Both the position numbers and the translations under genes were made by a program. From Methyloceanibacter sp. (GTDB taxonomy: Bacteria; Pseudomonadota; Alphaproteobacteria; Rhizobiales; Methyloligellaceae), in contig JAGPVD010000088.1 of NCBI GenBank assembly GCA_018067145.1, forward strand, positions 1 to 45,658: a stretch of DNA of 45,658 nt, written 5' to 3'. Under the pieces are notes generated by a model that searched no databases, was not told the DNA's origin, and saw nothing but the letters and a program-made list of their open reading frames with translations. Positions within the stretch are counted from its first letter, which is position 1. Each line of letters opens with the position of its first letter. Below are positions 3,621 through 11,590 of this stretch, piece after piece.

Positions 3621-5042
3621 TCAGTCTTGCCCAGCCGCATCTTTTTGGGTTTCGCCCACGGGATGCGCGCGCGTGGCGAGGCTTGACCCGGCCGTCTTCG
3701 GTAGGCGCATGAAGACGAATGCCGAGCTTGCCGCGAAGGCAGCAACGACAAGGAACGCGGCGGGGAAGTCGCTCGCCAGCACGTCTTGGGAGCCACGCCC
3801 CATGCGCTCGAATTCAAGCACCAGGGCGGCCACGGCCACACCCGCCGACATTGATAATTGTTGTCCGACGCTGGCGAAGCTCGTCGCCTTGCTCATGTCC
3901 CTGTCGCCGATGTCGGCGTAAGCGAGCGAGTTGACGGCGGTGAACTCCAACGACCTGAAGAAGCCGCCGACGAGCAGCACGGCCATGATCACCGCGCTCG
4001 GCGTGGCGGCGCTGAACAGAGACGCGGTTGCGATGAAGAGGGCGCTGATCACAGCGTTCCAAACCAGCACCCGCTTAAAGCCGACCCGGCGTAGGATGGG
4101 TGCCGCCGTGGTCTTCATGGCGATGGCTCCGACAGCCGTGGCGAAGGTGAGCATGCCCGACTGCAAAGGCGTCATGCCGAAGCCGAGTTGCAAGAACAGG
4201 GGCAGCAGGAAGGGCGAGGCACCGACGCCGATACGGAACAGGAAACCGCCGACGACGCTGGCGTAGAACGTGTCGATCCTGAGCAGGTTGAGATCGAGCA
4301 GCGGGTTGGGCGTTTTCCTGGCGTGACGCACATAGAGCCAGCAGGAGGTGATGCCGATCGCGATCAGGCCAAACACGATTTCGGTCGGGAACAGGCCCTG
4401 GCCGATCGTGGTGAAGCCGAAGACGATGCCGGAGAGCCCAATGCCAGAAAGAAAGAAGCCTTTGATGTCGAGCGGCGGCACTTCCTCTTCACGGAAATCG
4501 GCGATGTAGCGCGTGGCGAGAAGGAAGCCGAGGAGGCCGATGGGAATGTTGATCCAGAAGATCCAGCGCCAGTCGAACATCGTCGTGATGAAGCCGCCGA
4601 GTGGGGGGCCGAGCACCGGGCCCATGAGCGCCGGAATGGTGAGCCAGGCGAGCGCGGAGATCAGCTCCGCCTTCGGCACGCTGCGCAAGATGACAAGCCG
4701 CCCGACCGGCACCATCATGGCGCCGCCCATGCCTTGGACGATGCGGAACAGTACGAAGTCGAAAAGCGATTCAGCAAAGCCGCACGCCGCCGAGCCGACG
4801 GTGAAGACGACGATGGCCATGCGGAATACGGTGCGGGCGCCAAACCGGTCAGCCATCCAGCCACTCACCGGGATGAACACGGCGAGCGACAGGAGATAGG
4901 ACGTGATGGCGAGCTTAAGCGCGATGGGGTCTTCGCCGAGATCGGCGGCAATCACCGGCAACGACGTCGCGATGACGGTCGAATCCATGGTCTCCATGAA
5001 CAGGGCGACCGCAACGATCAAGGTGACGAAGTAGCGTGGCAT
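3621..5042 (-). CDS. DHA2-family MFS drug efflux transporter (EmrB/QacA type)
   Basis: 473 residues, with hydrophobic segments in the 14-helix arrangement of the DHA2 drug:proton antiporters. The first helix carries the conserved METMDSTVIATSLPVIA-type motif D1. Loop 2-3 has the MFS signature (GWMADRFGAR, residues about 61-70), and helix 5 shows the antiporter motif C (PALMGPVLGPPLGG). It should export hydrophobic or amphipathic toxic compounds across the inner membrane. No periplasmic adaptor (EmrA) or TetR regulator is adjacent. It lies antisense between the Ppx/GppA gene and rlmE, which suggests a later insertion. The ATG is the only plausible start. Confidence 0.9.
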   Translation of the reverse strand: MPRYFVTLIVAVALFMETMDSTVIATSLPVIAADLGEDPIALKLAITSYLLSLAVFIPVSGWMADRFGARTVFRMAIVVFTVGSAACGFAESLFDFVLFRIVQGMGGAMMVPVGRLVILRSVPKAELISALAWLTIPALMGPVLGPPLGGFITTMFDWRWIFWINIPIGLLGFLLATRYIADFREEEVPPLDIKGFFLSGIGLSGIVFGFTTIGQGLFPTEIVFGLIAIGITSCWLYVRHARKTPNPLLDLNLLRIDTFYASVVGGFLFRIGVGASPFLLPLFLQLGFGMTPLQSGMLTFATAVGAIAMKTTAAPILRRVGFKRVLVWNAVISALFIATASLFSAATPSAVIMAVLLVGGFFRSLEFTAVNSLAYADIGDRDMSKATSFASVGQQLSMSAGVAVAALVLEFERMGRGSQDVLASDFPAAFLVVAAFAASSAFVFMRLPKTAGSSLATRAHPVGETQKDAAGQD

Positions 5043-5096: not shown

Positions 5097-5819
5097 ATGG
5101 TGAAATCAACAAAAGGTGGCGGACCTTCAGGGCGCGCGGCTGCAGGGCGCCGTGGGCTCACGGTCAAGCTGCGCACTGCTAAGGGGCGGAAGATCGCTTC
5201 GACGCGCTGGCTTCAGCGTCAACTCAACGATCCTTATGTCACCGAGGCGAAGCGCCAGGGCTATCGCAGCCGCGCGGCCTTCAAGCTCATCGAGATTGAC
5301 GACAAGAACCATCTGCTCAAGCCCGGCAAGACCGTGATCGACCTTGGCGCGGCGCCCGGCGGCTGGTGCCAGGTCGCGGCGGAGCGTGTGAAGTCGGTGA
5401 AGGGGAAGGGCACGGTGATAGCTGCCGACCTCAAGGAGATCGAGCCGATCCCCGGCGTCGAATTCATGGCGCTCGACATCAGCGACCCGGAGGCCGATGA
5501 GAAGATCAAAGCCGCGCTCGGCGGTGCCAAAGTCGATGTGGTCCTTTCCGACATGGCGGCAGCGGCAATGGGCCATAAACCGACCGACCACATCCGTGTG
5601 GTGATGCTCGCCGAAGCTGCACTCGACCTCGCCGAAGATGTGCTCGATCCCGGTGGCGCCTTCCTTGCCAAAGTGCTGCAAGGCGGCGCCAGCCATGACC
5701 TGCTGCAGCGCCTGCGGCTAGGCTTCGCCAAGGTCAGCCACGTGAAGCCTAAGGCCTCCCGCTCCGATTCCGCGGAAGTCTATGTGTTGGGGATGGGATT
5801 TCGCGGCGCGCCAAAGTGA
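5097..5819 (+). CDS. rlmE: 23S rRNA (uridine-2'-O-)methyltransferase RlmE
   Basis: 240 residues of the FtsJ/RrmJ family, which 2'-O-methylates U2552 in the A-loop of 23S rRNA during late 50S assembly. The K-D-K-E catalytic tetrad is complete: K63, D152, K192, E227, with spacing equal to the E. coli enzyme. SAM-binding motif I is [10 protein letters not shown] (81-90). An approximately 25-residue basic extension (Lys/Arg/Gly) precedes the usual start, likely aiding RNA binding. It starts 54 bp from the divergent MFS gene, so its promoter must lie in or near that short gap. Confidence 0.95.
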
Positions 5820-5937
5820 CGGTTCTCTTGCAGATAGCGTTCACAGGACTGTGCGCGGGCGAAAGCTGCCTAAGCCGAACGACTCTTGCTAGGGTGCCGC
5901 CGAGATTGACCGGACAGGACGTATAGGGAGCGACGCA

Positions 5938-6996
5938 ATGAACGTTGAGGTTGTGAAAGAGTATTACGGCAAGGTCCTCAAAGGCTCGGAGGACCTTAAG
6001 ACCTCGGCGTGTTGTGATGGCGGTGGCGTGCCGGGCTACCTCGAAGCGGCAATCGCCAACGTGCATGAAGAGGTCCGGTCCAAATATTATGGCTGCGGTA
6101 TCGTCATTCCCGCCGCGCTTGAAAGCTGCCGCGTTCTCGACCTCGGCTCGGGCTCGGGCCGCGACGTCTATCTGATCTCGCAGCTCGTGGGCGCGGATGG
6201 CGAAGTCGTCGGCGTTGACATGACTGACGAGCAATTGGCCACCGCCGAAGCCCACAAAGACTGGCACATGAAGAAATTCGGCTTTGCCAAGCCCAATGTG
6301 CGCTTCCTCAAAGGCTATCTCGAAAAGCTCGATGAGCTCGATCTGCACCCTGGGTCATTCGACGTGGTGGTGTCGAACTGCGTCATCAATCTTTGCGTCG
6401 ACAAGCTTGCAGTGCTGCGCGGCGCGCATCGGCTGCTGAAGCCGGGCGGCGAGATCTATTTCGCCGACGTTTATTGCGACCGGCGTCTCCCCGACGAAAT
6501 CCGTGCCGACCCGCTACTCTACGGCGAGTGCCTTGGCGGCGCACTTTATTGGAACGACTTTTTGCCCATGGCGAAACAGGCAGGCTTCCTTGATCCACGA
6601 CTCGTCACCAGCCGTCCGATCTCGGTGGACAATGAGGAGATGCGGCAGAAGCTCGGCCAGGCGCAGTTCTTCTCCGCCACTTATCGGCTGTTCAAGAACG
6701 ATGAGCTTGAGTCCGCGTGCGAGGATTACGGTCAGGCCGTGGTCTATCGCGGTGGCGTCCCTGAGCAGGAGCAAGCCTTCGAACTGGACGAGCACCATTT
6801 CATCGAGCGCGGCAAAGTGTTTCCGGTCTGCGGTAACACATGGCGCATGCTCGCCGAGACGCGGTTCCAGCCCTATTTCGATTTCGTTGGCGACTTCTCG
6901 AACCATTACGGGATTTTCACCGACTGCGGCACTTCGCTTCCCTTCAATGAGGCGGCGCTAGCGCAAGGGTCCGAGCCGGAATCCAGTTGCTGCTAG
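5938..6996 (+). CDS. arsM: Arsenite S-adenosylmethyltransferase ArsM
   Basis: 352 residues. It methylates As(III) stepwise with SAM to mono-, di- and trimethylated species. The Rossmann motif VLDLGSGSGRD is at 67-76. The four cysteines of the family are all placed correctly: the C25-C26 pair, C53 in YGCG, C148 in SNCVINL and C198 in ECLGGALYW; the last three form the arsenic site in characterised enzymes. The C-terminus ends in a Cys-Cys pair (351-352), also common in ArsM proteins. AGGGAG sits eight bases before the ATG. The aquaporin-type channel gene starts 24 bp downstream, forming an apparent two-gene arsenic operon. I see no arsR or recognisable ArsR operator nearby. Confidence 0.93.
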   Translation: MNVEVVKEYYGKVLKGSEDLKTSACCDGGGVPGYLEAAIANVHEEVRSKYYGCGIVIPAALESCRVLDLGSGSGRDVYLISQLVGADGEVVGVDMTDEQLATAEAHKDWHMKKFGFAKPNVRFLKGYLEKLDELDLHPGSFDVVVSNCVINLCVDKLAVLRGAHRLLKPGGEIYFADVYCDRRLPDEIRADPLLYGECLGGALYWNDFLPMAKQAGFLDPRLVTSRPISVDNEEMRQKLGQAQFFSATYRLFKNDELESACEDYGQAVVYRGGVPEQEQAFELDEHHFIERGKVFPVCGNTWRMLAETRFQPYFDFVGDFSNHYGIFTDCGTSLPFNEAALAQGSEPESSCC

Positions 6997-7020
6997 CAGG
7001 CTGAACGGGGAGGGGGCGCC

Positions 7021-7704
7021 ATGACGTTCGATCTGACACGGCGGTTCGTGGCCGAGACTCTCGGCACGTTCTTTCTCGTTATGGCCATCGTCGGCTCAGG
7101 TATCATGGCGCAGGAGCTTGCCGGCGGGAACGAGGCCCTGGCGCTTCTCTGCAACATGGCGTCGGTTGGCGCGGCGCTGTTCGTCATCATCACCATCTTC
7201 GTGTCGGTGTCGGGCGCGCATTTCAATCCGGCCGTGAGCCTGGTCATGTGGCTTCGGGGCGATCTCGATCGCCCGGAAGCCATTGCCTATATCGGCGTGC
7301 AGATCGTTGGAGGTTGCGTCGGCGCCATCGTCGCGCATCTGATGTTTGGTCTGGAGCCGGTGCAGTTCTCCCAAACGGCGCGGACCGGTATTGGTCAATG
7401 GTTCGGCGAGTTCGTCGCCACGTTCGGACTGATCGCCACCATTCTCGGCTGCGTGCGTTTCAACATGGCGATGATTGCGCCGGCGGTCGGCCTTTACATC
7501 GCGTCCGCCTATTGGTTCACGTCGTCGACGTCTTTCGCTAACCCCGCTGTTATCATCGCGCGGGCGTTCAGCGATACATTCACGGGCATCGCCCCCCAGC
7601 ACGTTCCGGCCTTTTTATTGGCGGAGGTGCTGGGCGCGATTGCGGCCGCAATGCTGTTAGGTTGGCTGTTTCGGCCGGGCGAGGCCGCAAGCAAGGCTAA
7701 GTAA
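7021..7704 (+). CDS. aqpS: AqpS-like aquaglyceroporin, probable arsenical channel
   Basis: 227 residues, six membrane segments plus two half-helices carrying the NPA motifs: HFNPAV (N69-A71) and FANPAV (N174-A176). The arginine that normally follows the second NPA in water and glycerol channels is valine here (V177), giving a wider, less polar filter. AqpS of rhizobial ars operons has the same character. Lying 24 bp after arsM, it probably conducts As(III) or methylated arsenicals down their gradient, taking the place of an ArsB/Acr3 pump. Direction and substrate are inferred from context. A plain water or glycerol role is possible but less likely given the neighbour. Confidence 0.85.
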   Translation: MTFDLTRRFVAETLGTFFLVMAIVGSGIMAQELAGGNEALALLCNMASVGAALFVIITIFVSVSGAHFNPAVSLVMWLRGDLDRPEAIAYIGVQIVGGCVGAIVAHLMFGLEPVQFSQTARTGIGQWFGEFVATFGLIATILGCVRFNMAMIAPAVGLYIASAYWFTSSTSFANPAVIIARAFSDTFTGIAPQHVPAFLLAEVLGAIAAAMLLGWLFRPGEAASKAK

Positions 7705-7715
7705 AAAAGGACGGC

Positions 7716-8321
7716 CTATTTCGCTTTGGCGAGGTCGGCGCGCAAGCGTTTGTTCTCGGCCTCAAGCGCACTGATTTGTTCGGCAAGACCGGTCGCATCC
7801 TCGGCAAACACCATGAGAGGAATGTGTTGCGGGCAATTCATGTCCCAGGCCTCGACCGTGAACAGGATCGCTGCTTCGCCACGCGCTTGGTAGTTCTTCG
7901 GCAAGAGGCTCTCCAGTAGCTCCGGGTCGTTTTCGACCACGCGTGCGCGGCCCCAAACCTTCACCCGACTGCGGGTGCGGTAATCCATCAGGAAGATCAT
8001 CGCGCGCGGATTCTCGACGAGATTTCCCGTCGAGATATATTGCCGGTTGCCGGTGAAGTCGGCGAAGGCGAGCGTGTGCTCATCGAGGACGCGCAGGAAA
8101 CCCGGCGGTCCGCCACGATGCTGGATGTAAGGCTGGCCGTCAGCGCTGGCGGTGGCGAAATAAAAGGATCGCATCCCGGCGATGAACTCGGCGAGATTGT
8201 CGTCGATGGCCGTCGTCGCGCTGCCTTTTTGCTCCATGCGCGCATAGCCTTGGCGCGAGCCGCGCCTTGTCTGCACGTCTTTGACGGCAGGCGAGAAGGC
8301 GAGGTCCATCCATGTGGTCAT
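7716..8321 (-). CDS. Pyridoxamine 5'-phosphate oxidase-like flavin-binding protein
   Basis: 201 residues with the split-barrel fold of PNPOx-like proteins: FYFATASADGQPYIQHRGGPPGF in the first half, then a strand of the type LAFADFTGNRQYISTGNL typical of FMN or F420 binders, and a regulatory-looking C-terminal coiled coil (last 25 residues, EQISALEAENKRLRADL). The upstream GST stop and this ATG share an ATGA overlap (8321-8318), which decides the start; an ATG four codons earlier is less likely. The substrate is unknown. Such proteins often reduce or bind reactive small molecules, fitting a shared role with the GST. It converges on aqpS with 11 bp between stops. Confidence 0.8.
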   Translation of the reverse strand: MTTWMDLAFSPAVKDVQTRRGSRQGYARMEQKGSATTAIDDNLAEFIAGMRSFYFATASADGQPYIQHRGGPPGFLRVLDEHTLAFADFTGNRQYISTGNLVENPRAMIFLMDYRTRSRVKVWGRARVVENDPELLESLLPKNYQARGEAAILFTVEAWDMNCPQHIPLMVFAEDATGLAEQISALEAENKRLRADLAKAK

Positions 8322-10072: not shown

Positions 10073-11590
10073 ATGCCGGACGGGCAGTCTTCCAAAGATA
10101 ATTCCCGCTTCCCAGACAGCGCCATGGCGCTGACTTTCGACGACGTGCTGATCCGCCCAGGGCCGTCCGAAGTGCTGCCGAACGACGTCCAGGTCGTCTC
10201 GCGCGTCACGCGTTCGATTTCGGTGAATATCCCCGTGCTCTCCTCGGCCATGGACACGGTGACCGAGGCGCGGCTGGCCATTGCCATGGCGCAAGCCGGC
10301 GGCTTGGGCGTCATCCATCGTAATCTCGATCCTGAGATGCAGGCCGCCGAGGTCTCCCAGGTGAAGAAATTCGAGTCCGGCATGGTGGTGAACCCGGTCA
10401 CCATCCCGCCCGACGGGACGCTGGCCGATGCGCTCCAGCTGATGGCCGAGCATCGGATCTCAGGCATCCCCGTGGTCGAGCCCGCTGTCGACGGCGGTCC
10501 GGGCGGTAAGCTGGTGGGTATTCTGAGCAACCGTGATGTGCGCTTTGCGTCCAATCCAGGCCAGCGCGTGGCCGAGCTGATGACCAAGGATGGCCTCATC
10601 ACCGTCAAGGACAATGTGGATATGGACGAGGCCAAGCGGCTTCTCCATCAGCATCGCATTGAGAAGCTGATCGTGGTCGACGACGGGTATCACTGCGTCG
10701 GGCTCATAACGGTCAAGGATATCGAGAAGGCGCGCGCTCATCCGGACGCCTGCAAAGACGAGCAGGGGCGCTTGCGGGTAGCGGCGGCGACTAGCGTCGG
10801 CGATGCCGGTTTTGCTCGGGCCGAGGAACTGATCGACGCAGGCGCCGACCTCATCGTTGTGGATACCGCCCATGGCCATTCGCGGCTGGTGCTCGATCAG
10901 GTCCGCCGCATCAAGCGGCTTTCCAATGAAGTGCAAGTGATGGCCGGCAATGTGGCCACCGGCGATGGCACCAGGGCGTTGATCGACGCTGGCGCCGACG
11001 CCATCAAGGTTGGCATCGGCCCAGGCTCCATCTGCACCACGCGCATCGTGGCGGGCGTCGGCGTGCCGCAGTTCACGGCACTGCTCGAGTCCGTCGATGT
11101 GGCGCAAAAGGCGGACGTGCCGGTAATTTCCGACGGCGGCATTCGCTATTCCGGCGATCTCGCCAAGGCGCTGGCGGCGGGCGCCGACTGCGTGATGCTC
11201 GGCTCACTGCTTGCCGGCACCGACGAGAGCCCAGGCGAGGTGTTTCTCTACCAGGGCCGCTCCTATAAGGCGTATCGGGGTATGGGTTCGATCAGCGCCA
11301 TGGCGCGGGGTTCTGCCGACCGCTATTTCCAGCAGGACATCAAGGATACGCTGAAGCTGGTGCCGGAGGGGATTGAGGGACAGGTGCCCCATAAGGGCCC
11401 AGTGGGCAGCGTGCTGCACCAGCTCATTGGCGGTTTGCGGGCCTCCATGGGCTATACCGGCTCGGCCACGGTTCCCGAATTTCAGGCTCGCACCGAGTTC
11501 ATCCGCATCTCGACGGCAAGCTTCCGCGAGAGCCACGTGCATGACGTGACCATCACGCGGGAATCGCCCAACTACCCGCGCGAAGGGTAG
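10073..11590 (+). CDS. guaB: Inosine-5'-monophosphate dehydrogenase GuaB
   Basis: 505 residues, the usual length. It oxidises IMP to XMP with NAD+, the committed step to GMP. The TIM barrel is interrupted by a pair of CBS domains (about residues 105-225). The catalytic loop [11 protein letters not shown] carries the nucleophile C321, and the phosphate-binding glycines and the flap region ([10 protein letters not shown]) are present. AAGAGG is spaced correctly before the ATG. It lies 80 bp after the LysR gene. guaA is 3.9 kb downstream in the same direction, with MAPEG and RsmB-like genes between. Confidence 0.97.

What the first reader, a model, noticed from the sequence alone, without database searches (positions are those of the whole stretch)
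5938..7704. Two-gene arsenic unit: methyltransferase plus AqpS-like channel
ArsM retains all the conserved arsenic-binding cysteines, and the channel has a Val in place of the Arg after the second NPA. The pair would methylate arsenite and let the product or arsenite pass through a channel rather than a pump. There is no ArsR, ArsC or Acr3 nearby, so expression and supply of As(III) must come from elsewhere.
Basis: partly seen in the sequence, partly recalled or inferred. Interest (0 to 1): 0.55.

Follow-up and report, generated by a model that had tools for sequence, protein, structure and literature searches.

The report
Arsenic methylase paired with arsenite-type channel
Many bacteria of the genus Methyloceanibacter carry an arsenic-methylating enzyme gene directly followed by a passive arsenite-type channel gene, and in one close relative that channel's place is taken by an arsenite pump and its regulator, which points to arsenic disposal as the shared job.

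Summary
The two ORFs are exactly where stated: an ArsM whose four cysteines align with positions 44/72/174/224 of a solved ArsM, then, 24 bp on, an AqpS-type channel. The genome is a Methyloceanibacter. The pair occurs at one conserved site in 10 of 17 genus genomes; of the other seven, two have altered forms, two lack both genes at the site, three are cut off by contig ends. Both genes are under purifying selection and each forms one clade. The best functional evidence is natural: in M. superfactus, sister to the window in the arsM tree, the channel is absent and arsR-acr3 stands in its place; another congener keeps the channel but has lost arsM. Five congener loci read carry arsR-arsC-arsH elsewhere: the S. 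meliloti operon without aqpS. The Val after the second NPA is not special: all 45 AqpS-type proteins compared have it. Most likely the unit disposes of intracellular As(III) by methylation and passive exit; the Acr3 swap favours inorganic As(III) as main cargo. Transport, methylation and co-transcription are untested. A new arrangement of known parts.

The parts
5820..5937 (+). upstream region of arsM; holds a block (5840-5854, TTCAC..GACTGTGC type) conserved upstream of arsM in most congeners, M. superfactus included, but not in G205
   Evidence: alignments; the window's 15-mer occurs once in the 45.7-kb window at up to 3 mismatches; no sigma-70-like promoter by consensus scan; function unknown
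5938..6996 (+). [quoted passage not shown]
   Evidence: dN/dS 0.035-0.166 in eight chosen genus comparisons
6997..7020 (+). 24-bp gap with a GGGGAGGGGG stretch before the aqpS start; no terminator-like site in it
7021..7704 (+). aqpS-type major intrinsic protein (channel), 227 aa; NPA at 69-71, NPAV at 174-177; V49, S162, S171, V177 at the positions that align with the ar/R filter
   Evidence: dN/dS 0.032-0.196 in eight chosen genus comparisons
5097..5819 (+). rlmE, left anchor of the site
   Evidence: directly before arsM in 8 of 10 pair genomes
10073..11590 (+). guaB, right anchor of the site
   Evidence: named by my reading of the ORF; found by tblastn on the right in 8 of 10 pair genomes, the contigs of the other two (G201, G204) end before it

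Best explanation
arsM-aqpS is one arsenic-disposal unit of Methyloceanibacter. Arsenate that enters through phosphate uptake is reduced to As(III) by an arsenate reductase encoded elsewhere (inferred; arsR-arsC-arsH is shown in congeners, not in the own assembly). ArsM methylates part of that As(III) (inferred from homology and cysteines). AqpS lets neutral As(OH)3, and perhaps methylated As(III), leave down its gradient (inferred from S. meliloti AqpS). In four pair-bearing species read, the arsR-arsC-arsH locus lacks the aqpS that S. meliloti has there, and the AqpS stands behind arsM; in M. superfactus arsR-acr3 has taken its place (shown in sequence).
For: Pair at one site in 10 of 17 genus genomes; each gene one clade: AqpS 100/99, ArsM 98/99. 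M. superfactus is sister to the window for arsM (98/94) and holds arsR-acr3 where aqpS stands in the others, so the swap looks derived. G206 keeps aqpS with only 3'-end remnants of arsM. arsR-arsC-arsH without aqpS in five of five congener loci read against arsR-aqpS-arsC-arsH in S. meliloti. ArsB over the cut-off in 0 of 17 genomes, Acr3 in 2 of 17; of these two families and AqpS, only AqpS was found in nine of the ten pair genomes. Purifying selection on both genes. In the order, 14 of 25 AqpS loci read have an ArsR match within 1.5 kb. MIP genes also adjoin arsM in two Gallionella-type MAGs and two other genomes. S. meliloti AqpS is reported to let internally made As(III) out (Yang 2005, as told in PMC1440775, passages).
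Against: No transport, resistance or expression data. Beyond the genus no AqpS-type channel was seen next to arsM: 0 of the other 9 strong-ArsM genomes of the order draw. G204 has the pair and also acr3 with arsC and arsR on another contig (6% contamination). NCBIfam ArsM and MIP models are matched below their cut-offs. The arsM upstream region lacks the operator-like stretch seen before arsR in four of five arsR-arsC-arsH loci, so control by that ArsR is not supported. In AQP9 the Arg that AqpS lacks was needed for MAs(III) and As(III) (PMC1440775). In 2 of 10 pairs the gap is 135 and 152 bp and holds an inverted repeat.
Confidence: 0.68

Rival explanations
1. The genes share a site and perhaps a transcript, but act separately: AqpS only lets out inorganic As(III) made by ArsC, and ArsM methylates a part of it; no route from enzyme product to channel. 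(A narrower form of the best explanation, so the odds overlap with it.)
For: Acr3 (recalled to be an inorganic As(III) exporter) stands in place of aqpS in M. superfactus while arsM stays; G206 keeps aqpS after losing arsM; G140 and G202 have AqpS in an arsR-LMWPc-aqpS order and no long arsM.
Against: Spacing of 18-25 bp in 8 of 10 pairs and recurrence of MIP-arsM neighbours in other lineages suggest a closer link.
Confidence: 0.45
2. The unit releases toxic methylarsenite: the channel is the outlet (or As(III) inlet) by which MAs(III) made by ArsM reaches competitors.
For: The ArsM has all four cysteines; MAs(III) as a warfare product under anoxic conditions is proposed in print (PMC11653729, start of abstract in the search listing); the pore positions hold no Arg and, in the window, Val instead of Thr49.
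Against: Acr3 stands in place of the channel in M. superfactus; the five congener loci read keep an arsH match, whose product is reported to act as methylarsenite oxidase (PMC10138600, passage).
Confidence: 0.12
3. The channel carries another small neutral solute (water, glycerol, H2O2, boric acid) and its place behind arsM is incidental.
For: MIP channels are broad (recalled); the MIPs found next to arsM outside the genus bear NPA-R and are of other MIP types; no transport data here.
Against: The protein belongs to the AqpS group, of which 14 of 25 loci read in the order have an ArsR match, 4 an ArsC and 2 an ArsH match within 1.5 kb; same-site exchange with arsR-acr3.
Confidence: 0.12

Closest known systems
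Sinorhizobium meliloti AqpS arsenic operon arsR-aqpS-arsC-arsH
   Same: AqpS-type channel, 54% identical, with Val after the second NPA; a channel instead of ArsB/Acr3; ArsC, ArsH and ArsR matches in congeners
   Different: here aqpS lies behind arsM at another locus with no arsR; arsR-arsC-arsH without aqpS lies elsewhere in five of five congener loci read; position 49 is Val, not Thr
Long-form ArsM (solved arsenite/arsenic methyltransferases 5evj, 4kw7, 4fr0)
   Same: match over nearly the full length and all four cysteine positions
   Different: nothing decisive; NCBIfam subfamily PRK11873 matched below its cut-off
SAR11 (Pelagibacter) LMWPc ArsC followed by AqpS (PMC6426599, passages)
   Same: alphaproteobacterial AqpS-type channel proposed to let out arsenicals
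   Different: there beside an arsenate reductase in cells proposed to gain energy by oxidising methylarsenicals; here beside a methylating enzyme

Membership tests
ArsM (As(III) SAM methyltransferase) | full-length similarity to a characterised ArsM | tested here: met
   5evj E 1e-104 over residues 5-339; 4kw7 E 4e-87 over 6-328
ArsM (As(III) SAM methyltransferase) | conserved As-binding cysteines (44/72/174/224 in CmArsM; recalled) | tested here: met
   C25/C53/C148/C198 aligned, invariant in 11 of 11 genus sequences
ArsM (As(III) SAM methyltransferase) | curated NCBIfam cut-off of an ArsM model | tested here: not met
   PRK11873 168 bits against 263; the other ArsM models also below. NCBI's cut-offs bound particular subfamilies, so I do not take this as decisive for ArsM in the wide sense
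ArsM (As(III) SAM methyltransferase) | methylates As(III) | not testable with these tools
   needs an assay
Major intrinsic protein | two NPA motifs and Pfam MIP over gathering score | tested here: met
   86 bits against 25; NPA at 69-71 and 174-176
AqpS (S. meliloti-type) | groups with S. meliloti AqpS and carries NPA-V | tested here: met
   54% identity; among the 45 AqpS-type proteins of the tree, V177 in 45 of 45
AqpS (S. meliloti-type) | encoded in an ars operon with arsR/arsC | tested here: not met
   partner is arsM; no HTH_5 ArsR or PF03960 ArsC match on the contig
AqpS (S. meliloti-type) | conducts As(III) | not testable with these tools
   needs a flux assay
Co-transcribed unit (operon) | same strand, short gap, conserved order, no terminator between | tested here: met
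   18-25 bp in 8 of 10 pairs, 135 and 152 bp in two; no terminator-like site in the window's gap
Co-transcribed unit (operon) | a shared transcript | not testable with these tools
   needs RT-PCR or RNA-seq

The most novel reading that the evidence does not exclude
A dedicated methylate-and-release unit: AqpS of Methyloceanibacter has become the outlet for ArsM's product, with a pore that lacks the filter Arg and, in the window species and G206, also the conserved Thr49, so that methylarsenite passes; one species has gone over to pumping As(III) by putting arsR-acr3 in the same place.
Probability: 0.2. Interest if true: 0.6.

Novelty: new variant of a known kind. Interest (0 to 1): 0.42.

Why it matters
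AqpS is a known case of a channel doing a pump's work in arsenic resistance. Here the same kind of channel stands behind a methyltransferase, away from its usual operon, and one genus offers natural versions of the locus: both genes, methylase with pump and regulator, channel with methylase remnant, and neither. That makes it directly testable whether the channel serves inorganic As(III), methylarsenicals or both. Named strains exist: M. methanicus R-67174 with the pair and M. superfactus R-67175 with the pump (record titles).

Tried and rejected
1) Val after NPA as evidence for a special channel: rejected, it is in 45 of 45 AqpS-type proteins compared. 2) A shared ArsR operator for arsM-aqpS and arsR-arsC-arsH: the AT-rich, palindrome-like stretch at the arsR start (four of five loci) has no counterpart that I could see before arsM, and the conserved arsM block has 4 to 6 mismatches at best in seven arsR upstream regions. 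3) The two HTH_5 proteins of the own assembly as arsenic regulators: one frame (C13) is 363 aa long and looks like an ArsR-methyltransferase fusion, the other (C97) stands beside a rhodanese-like gene and looks BigR-like (my reading); rejected. 4) Structure prediction of the channel gave mean pLDDT 44 and was not used. 5) G208, G207 and G199 as losses: rejected, the contigs end at or inside the site. 6) An aqpS remnant in M. superfactus: nothing convincing (best E 0.014, opposite strand). 7) Consensus promoter scan: no hit in 5700-7800. 8) The primary paper on AqpS (Yang 2005) is not held; it is cited only through passages in other papers.

Not tested: ArsP, ArsJ, ArsK and ArsI in any genome of the genus. 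For ArsR only HTH_5, not HTH_20, was searched, although the congener ArsR of arsR-arsC-arsH read in G074 is HTH_20-type and such proteins were found by HTH_5 only weakly. The own assembly is 82% complete, so absences in it are weak.

Full report
WHAT IS THERE. Two ORFs on the + strand, 5938-6996 (352 aa) and 7021-7704 (227 aa), lie 24 bp apart. The first matches solved arsenite methyltransferases over nearly its whole length (5evj E 1e-104; 4kw7 E 4e-87). By my count in the 4kw7 alignment C25, C53, C148 and C198 fall on positions 44, 72, 174 and 224, which I recall as the arsenic-binding cysteines of CmArsM; they are invariant in the 11 genus sequences aligned. NCBIfam's ArsM models are matched below their cut-offs (168 bits against 263 for PRK11873). 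The second is a major intrinsic protein (Pfam 86 bits against a cut-off of 25), 54% identical to S. meliloti AqpS; NCBIfam's MIP and AqpZ models are matched below their cut-offs.

WHOSE GENOME. The genome search gives a 2.34-Mb, 82%-complete assembly. Seven genomes of the same genus have contigs whose lengths equal those of records retrieved: Methyloceanibacter superfactus R-67175 (G209), M. methanicus R-67174 (G200), three Methyloceanibacter MAGs (G203, G204, G205) and two Hyphomicrobiaceae UBA MAGs (G031, G201). The window is therefore a Methyloceanibacter.

THE SITE IN THE GENUS. All 17 genus genomes held were searched with both proteins and regions read. Ten carry arsM directly followed by aqpS on the same strand (own, G031, G074, G109, G191, G200, G201, G203, G204, G205). 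rlmE lies directly before arsM in eight of them; in G200 about 1.07 kb with a 262-aa open frame on the other strand, and in G205 the PPOX-like gene, stand between. guaB follows on the right in eight; the contigs of G201 and G204 end before it. The arsM-aqpS gap is 18-25 bp in eight; in G203 and G205 it is 135 and 152 bp and holds an inverted repeat. G209 (M. superfactus) has arsM, but acr3 and arsR on the opposite strand lie where aqpS is in the others, between arsM and the PPOX, GST, lysR and guaB genes (Pfam SBF and HTH_5; Acr3 model 380 bits over a cut-off of 283); no remnant of aqpS was found. G206 has aqpS behind rlmE, no ArsM match in the assembly, and only a 31-nt and a 26-nt match to the 3' end of arsM in the gap. 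G140 and G202 have neither gene at the site and carry another AqpS in an arsR-LMWPc-aqpS order elsewhere. G199, G207 and G208 cannot be judged because contigs end in or at the site; in G208 the region before arsM is nearly identical to the window's up to the contig end.

DIRECTION OF CHANGE. In a tree of 44 ArsM proteins (window, 10 congeners and 33 chosen from the retrieved loci, not all) the genus is one clade (98/99) and M. superfactus is sister to the window (98/94), inside the pair-bearing species. In a tree of 45 AqpS-type proteins and one very distant outgroup row the 11 genus proteins from this site form one clade (100/99), apart from the G140/G202 type; many deeper forks are unresolved and one row (G168) has a long branch. 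So a single origin of the pair with a later pump-for-channel change is the simplest reading. dN/dS (Nei-Gojobori, own script, chosen pairs) is 0.035-0.166 for arsM and 0.032-0.196 for aqpS, eight comparisons each; dS is above 1 in three of the sixteen, which makes those rough.

THE REST OF THE PATHWAY. S. meliloti has arsR-aqpS-arsC-arsH (record annotation). In the five congener loci read (G074, G191, G200, G031, G209) matches to arsR, arsC and arsH follow each other without aqpS (families confirmed for G074); in M. superfactus the arsH match is split over two frames. In G074, G031, G191 and G200 this locus is on the same contig as the pair, 62-100 kb away by coordinates. G109 has an arsC with an ArsR-like hit beside it, not read further. 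In the own assembly no PF03960 ArsC, no Acr3, no ArsB and only two HTH_5 proteins, neither convincing as an arsenic regulator, were found; two LMWPc proteins are present, not near an HTH_5 hit, of types that also occur in many congeners. Acr3 passes its cut-off in 2 of 17 genomes (G204, G209), ArsB in 0 of 17. G204 thus has both the pair and, on another contig, acr3 with arsC and arsR (6% contamination). In the other nine pair genomes AqpS is the only one of the three searched As(III) exit types; ArsP, ArsJ and ArsK were not searched.

HOW UNUSUAL. In an even draw of 199 genomes of the order, 14 have a strong ArsM (over 250 bits; my cut on the rows). By coordinates aqpS adjoins arsM in five, all of this genus, and in none of the other nine, of which six have an AqpS-type hit on another contig. 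In a draw of 398 genomes of the phylum 38 have ArsM at E up to 1e-40; I read the 1.5-kb flanks of 29 besides the own genome, and two (L298, L299; ArsM 47-48% identical) have a MIP with NPA-R upstream on the same strand, about 250 and 30 bp away. Eight of the 38 were not read. So MIP genes next to arsM recur with different MIP types, while the AqpS type next to arsM was seen only in this genus. By a mechanical choice of downstream ORF, other neighbours among the 80 include LMWPc ArsC-like frames that begin inside the end of arsM (five loci) and phosphate-permease-like frames (six loci); one representative of each was checked by Pfam.

THE PORE. Positions 49, 162, 171 and 177 align with the four ar/R positions of AqpZ (position 49 falls on AqpZ Phe43 by my count; the others by spacing from NPA; the ar/R assignment is recalled). 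Thr49 is kept in 43 of 45 and is Val only in the window and G206. In AQP9 the Arg at the last position was needed for As(III) and MAs(III), while the position-49 equivalent could be changed (PMC1440775, passages); S. meliloti AqpS, which has Val there, is nevertheless reported to let As(III) out (same paper, citing Yang 2005). Hence pore residues do not decide the cargo. The structure model was too poor to help.

REGULATION. A block of the TTCAC..GACTGTGC type lies before arsM in most congeners, M. superfactus included, but not in G205. The window's form occurs once in the window at up to three mismatches and has no good match before arsR of the congeners. Four of five arsR-arsC-arsH upstream regions share an AT-rich, palindrome-like stretch at the arsR start that I do not see before arsM. 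This argues for control separate from that ArsR, perhaps constitutive; it is not a test.

MECHANISM. I think it most likely (0.68) that the pair disposes of As(III) formed inside the cell, by methylation and by passive exit. Shown: gene identity, pairing, conservation, arsR-acr3 in place of aqpS, loss of arsM with aqpS kept. Inferred: As(III) as cargo, methylation, direction of flux. A passive channel protects only when As(III) is higher inside than outside, which fits arsenate reduction inside the cell. Since Acr3 (recalled as an As(III) exporter) stands in place of the channel while arsM stays, inorganic As(III) is the likelier main cargo; methylarsenical exit is not excluded.

LITERATURE. 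Full-text searches for aqpS with arsM and arsenic, AqpS with Sinorhizobium, arsM with aquaglyceroporin and methylarsenite, arsM with aquaporin, AqpS with methylarsenicals, Methyloceanibacter with arsenic and arsM with aquaglyceroporin and methanotroph listed no paper whose title, abstract start or passages seen describe an arsM-aqpS pair. I saw passages of PMC6426599, PMC6205960, PMC4435449 (also the first of four parts), PMC8618186, PMC11401129, PMC1440775, PMC10138600, PMC4318275, PMC8262016 and PMC10969815, no whole paper; four of the ten papers were not opened. PMC4435449 reports 18 MIPs in 685 ars operons, none with another transporter, and does not hold the word arsM. The library lacks most subscription journals, so an earlier report may exist.

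VERDICT. Real, conserved, arsenic-related with good support, and a new arrangement of known parts. Interest is moderate: no new chemistry is shown, but the channel-for-pump difference at one site makes a clean test possible.

Noticed in passing
L147:9617-12120 (M. superfactus, G209): arsR-acr3, on the opposite strand, stands where other species of the genus have aqpS behind arsM.
   Followed up: yes
L150:4495-4692 (G206): arsM is gone; short remnants of its 3' end remain just before aqpS.
   Followed up: partly
L153 and L152, gap between arsM and aqpS (G203, G205): An inverted-repeat element lies in the 135- and 152-bp arsM-aqpS gap of these two genomes.
   Followed up: no
L155:7801-8868 (G200, M. 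methanicus): About 1.07 kb with a 262-aa open frame on the other strand lies between rlmE and arsM, unlike in the other pair genomes.
   Followed up: no
L243:4431-6169 and L248:8001-9731 (Gallionella-type MAGs): arsM directly followed by a MIP gene of another type with NPA-R; frameshifted in L248.
   Followed up: partly
L298 and L299 (G401, G241): A MIP gene with NPA-R lies upstream of a more distant ArsM, same strand.
   Followed up: partly
L064 (Ruegeria sp. YS9 plasmid): An AqpS-type MIP sits between a threonine/serine dehydratase gene and a MalY/PatB gene, with arsR and arsH near but no arsC annotated; unexplained.
   Followed up: no
L195, L198, L202, L235, L238: An ArsC-like LMWPc frame begins inside the end of arsM in these loci; Pfam check on L195 only.
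   Followed up: partly
L212, L219, L226, L247, L253, L254: A phosphate-permease-like (PHO4) frame follows arsM; Pfam check on L212 only.
   Followed up: partly
L158:7573-8206 (M. superfactus): The arsH match is split over two frames, so the gene may be frameshifted.
   Followed up: no
window 3621-5042 (-): EmrB-type DHA2 efflux MFS gene, found beside rlmE in nine of the ten pair genomes (the contig of G204 is too short to show it).
   Followed up: no
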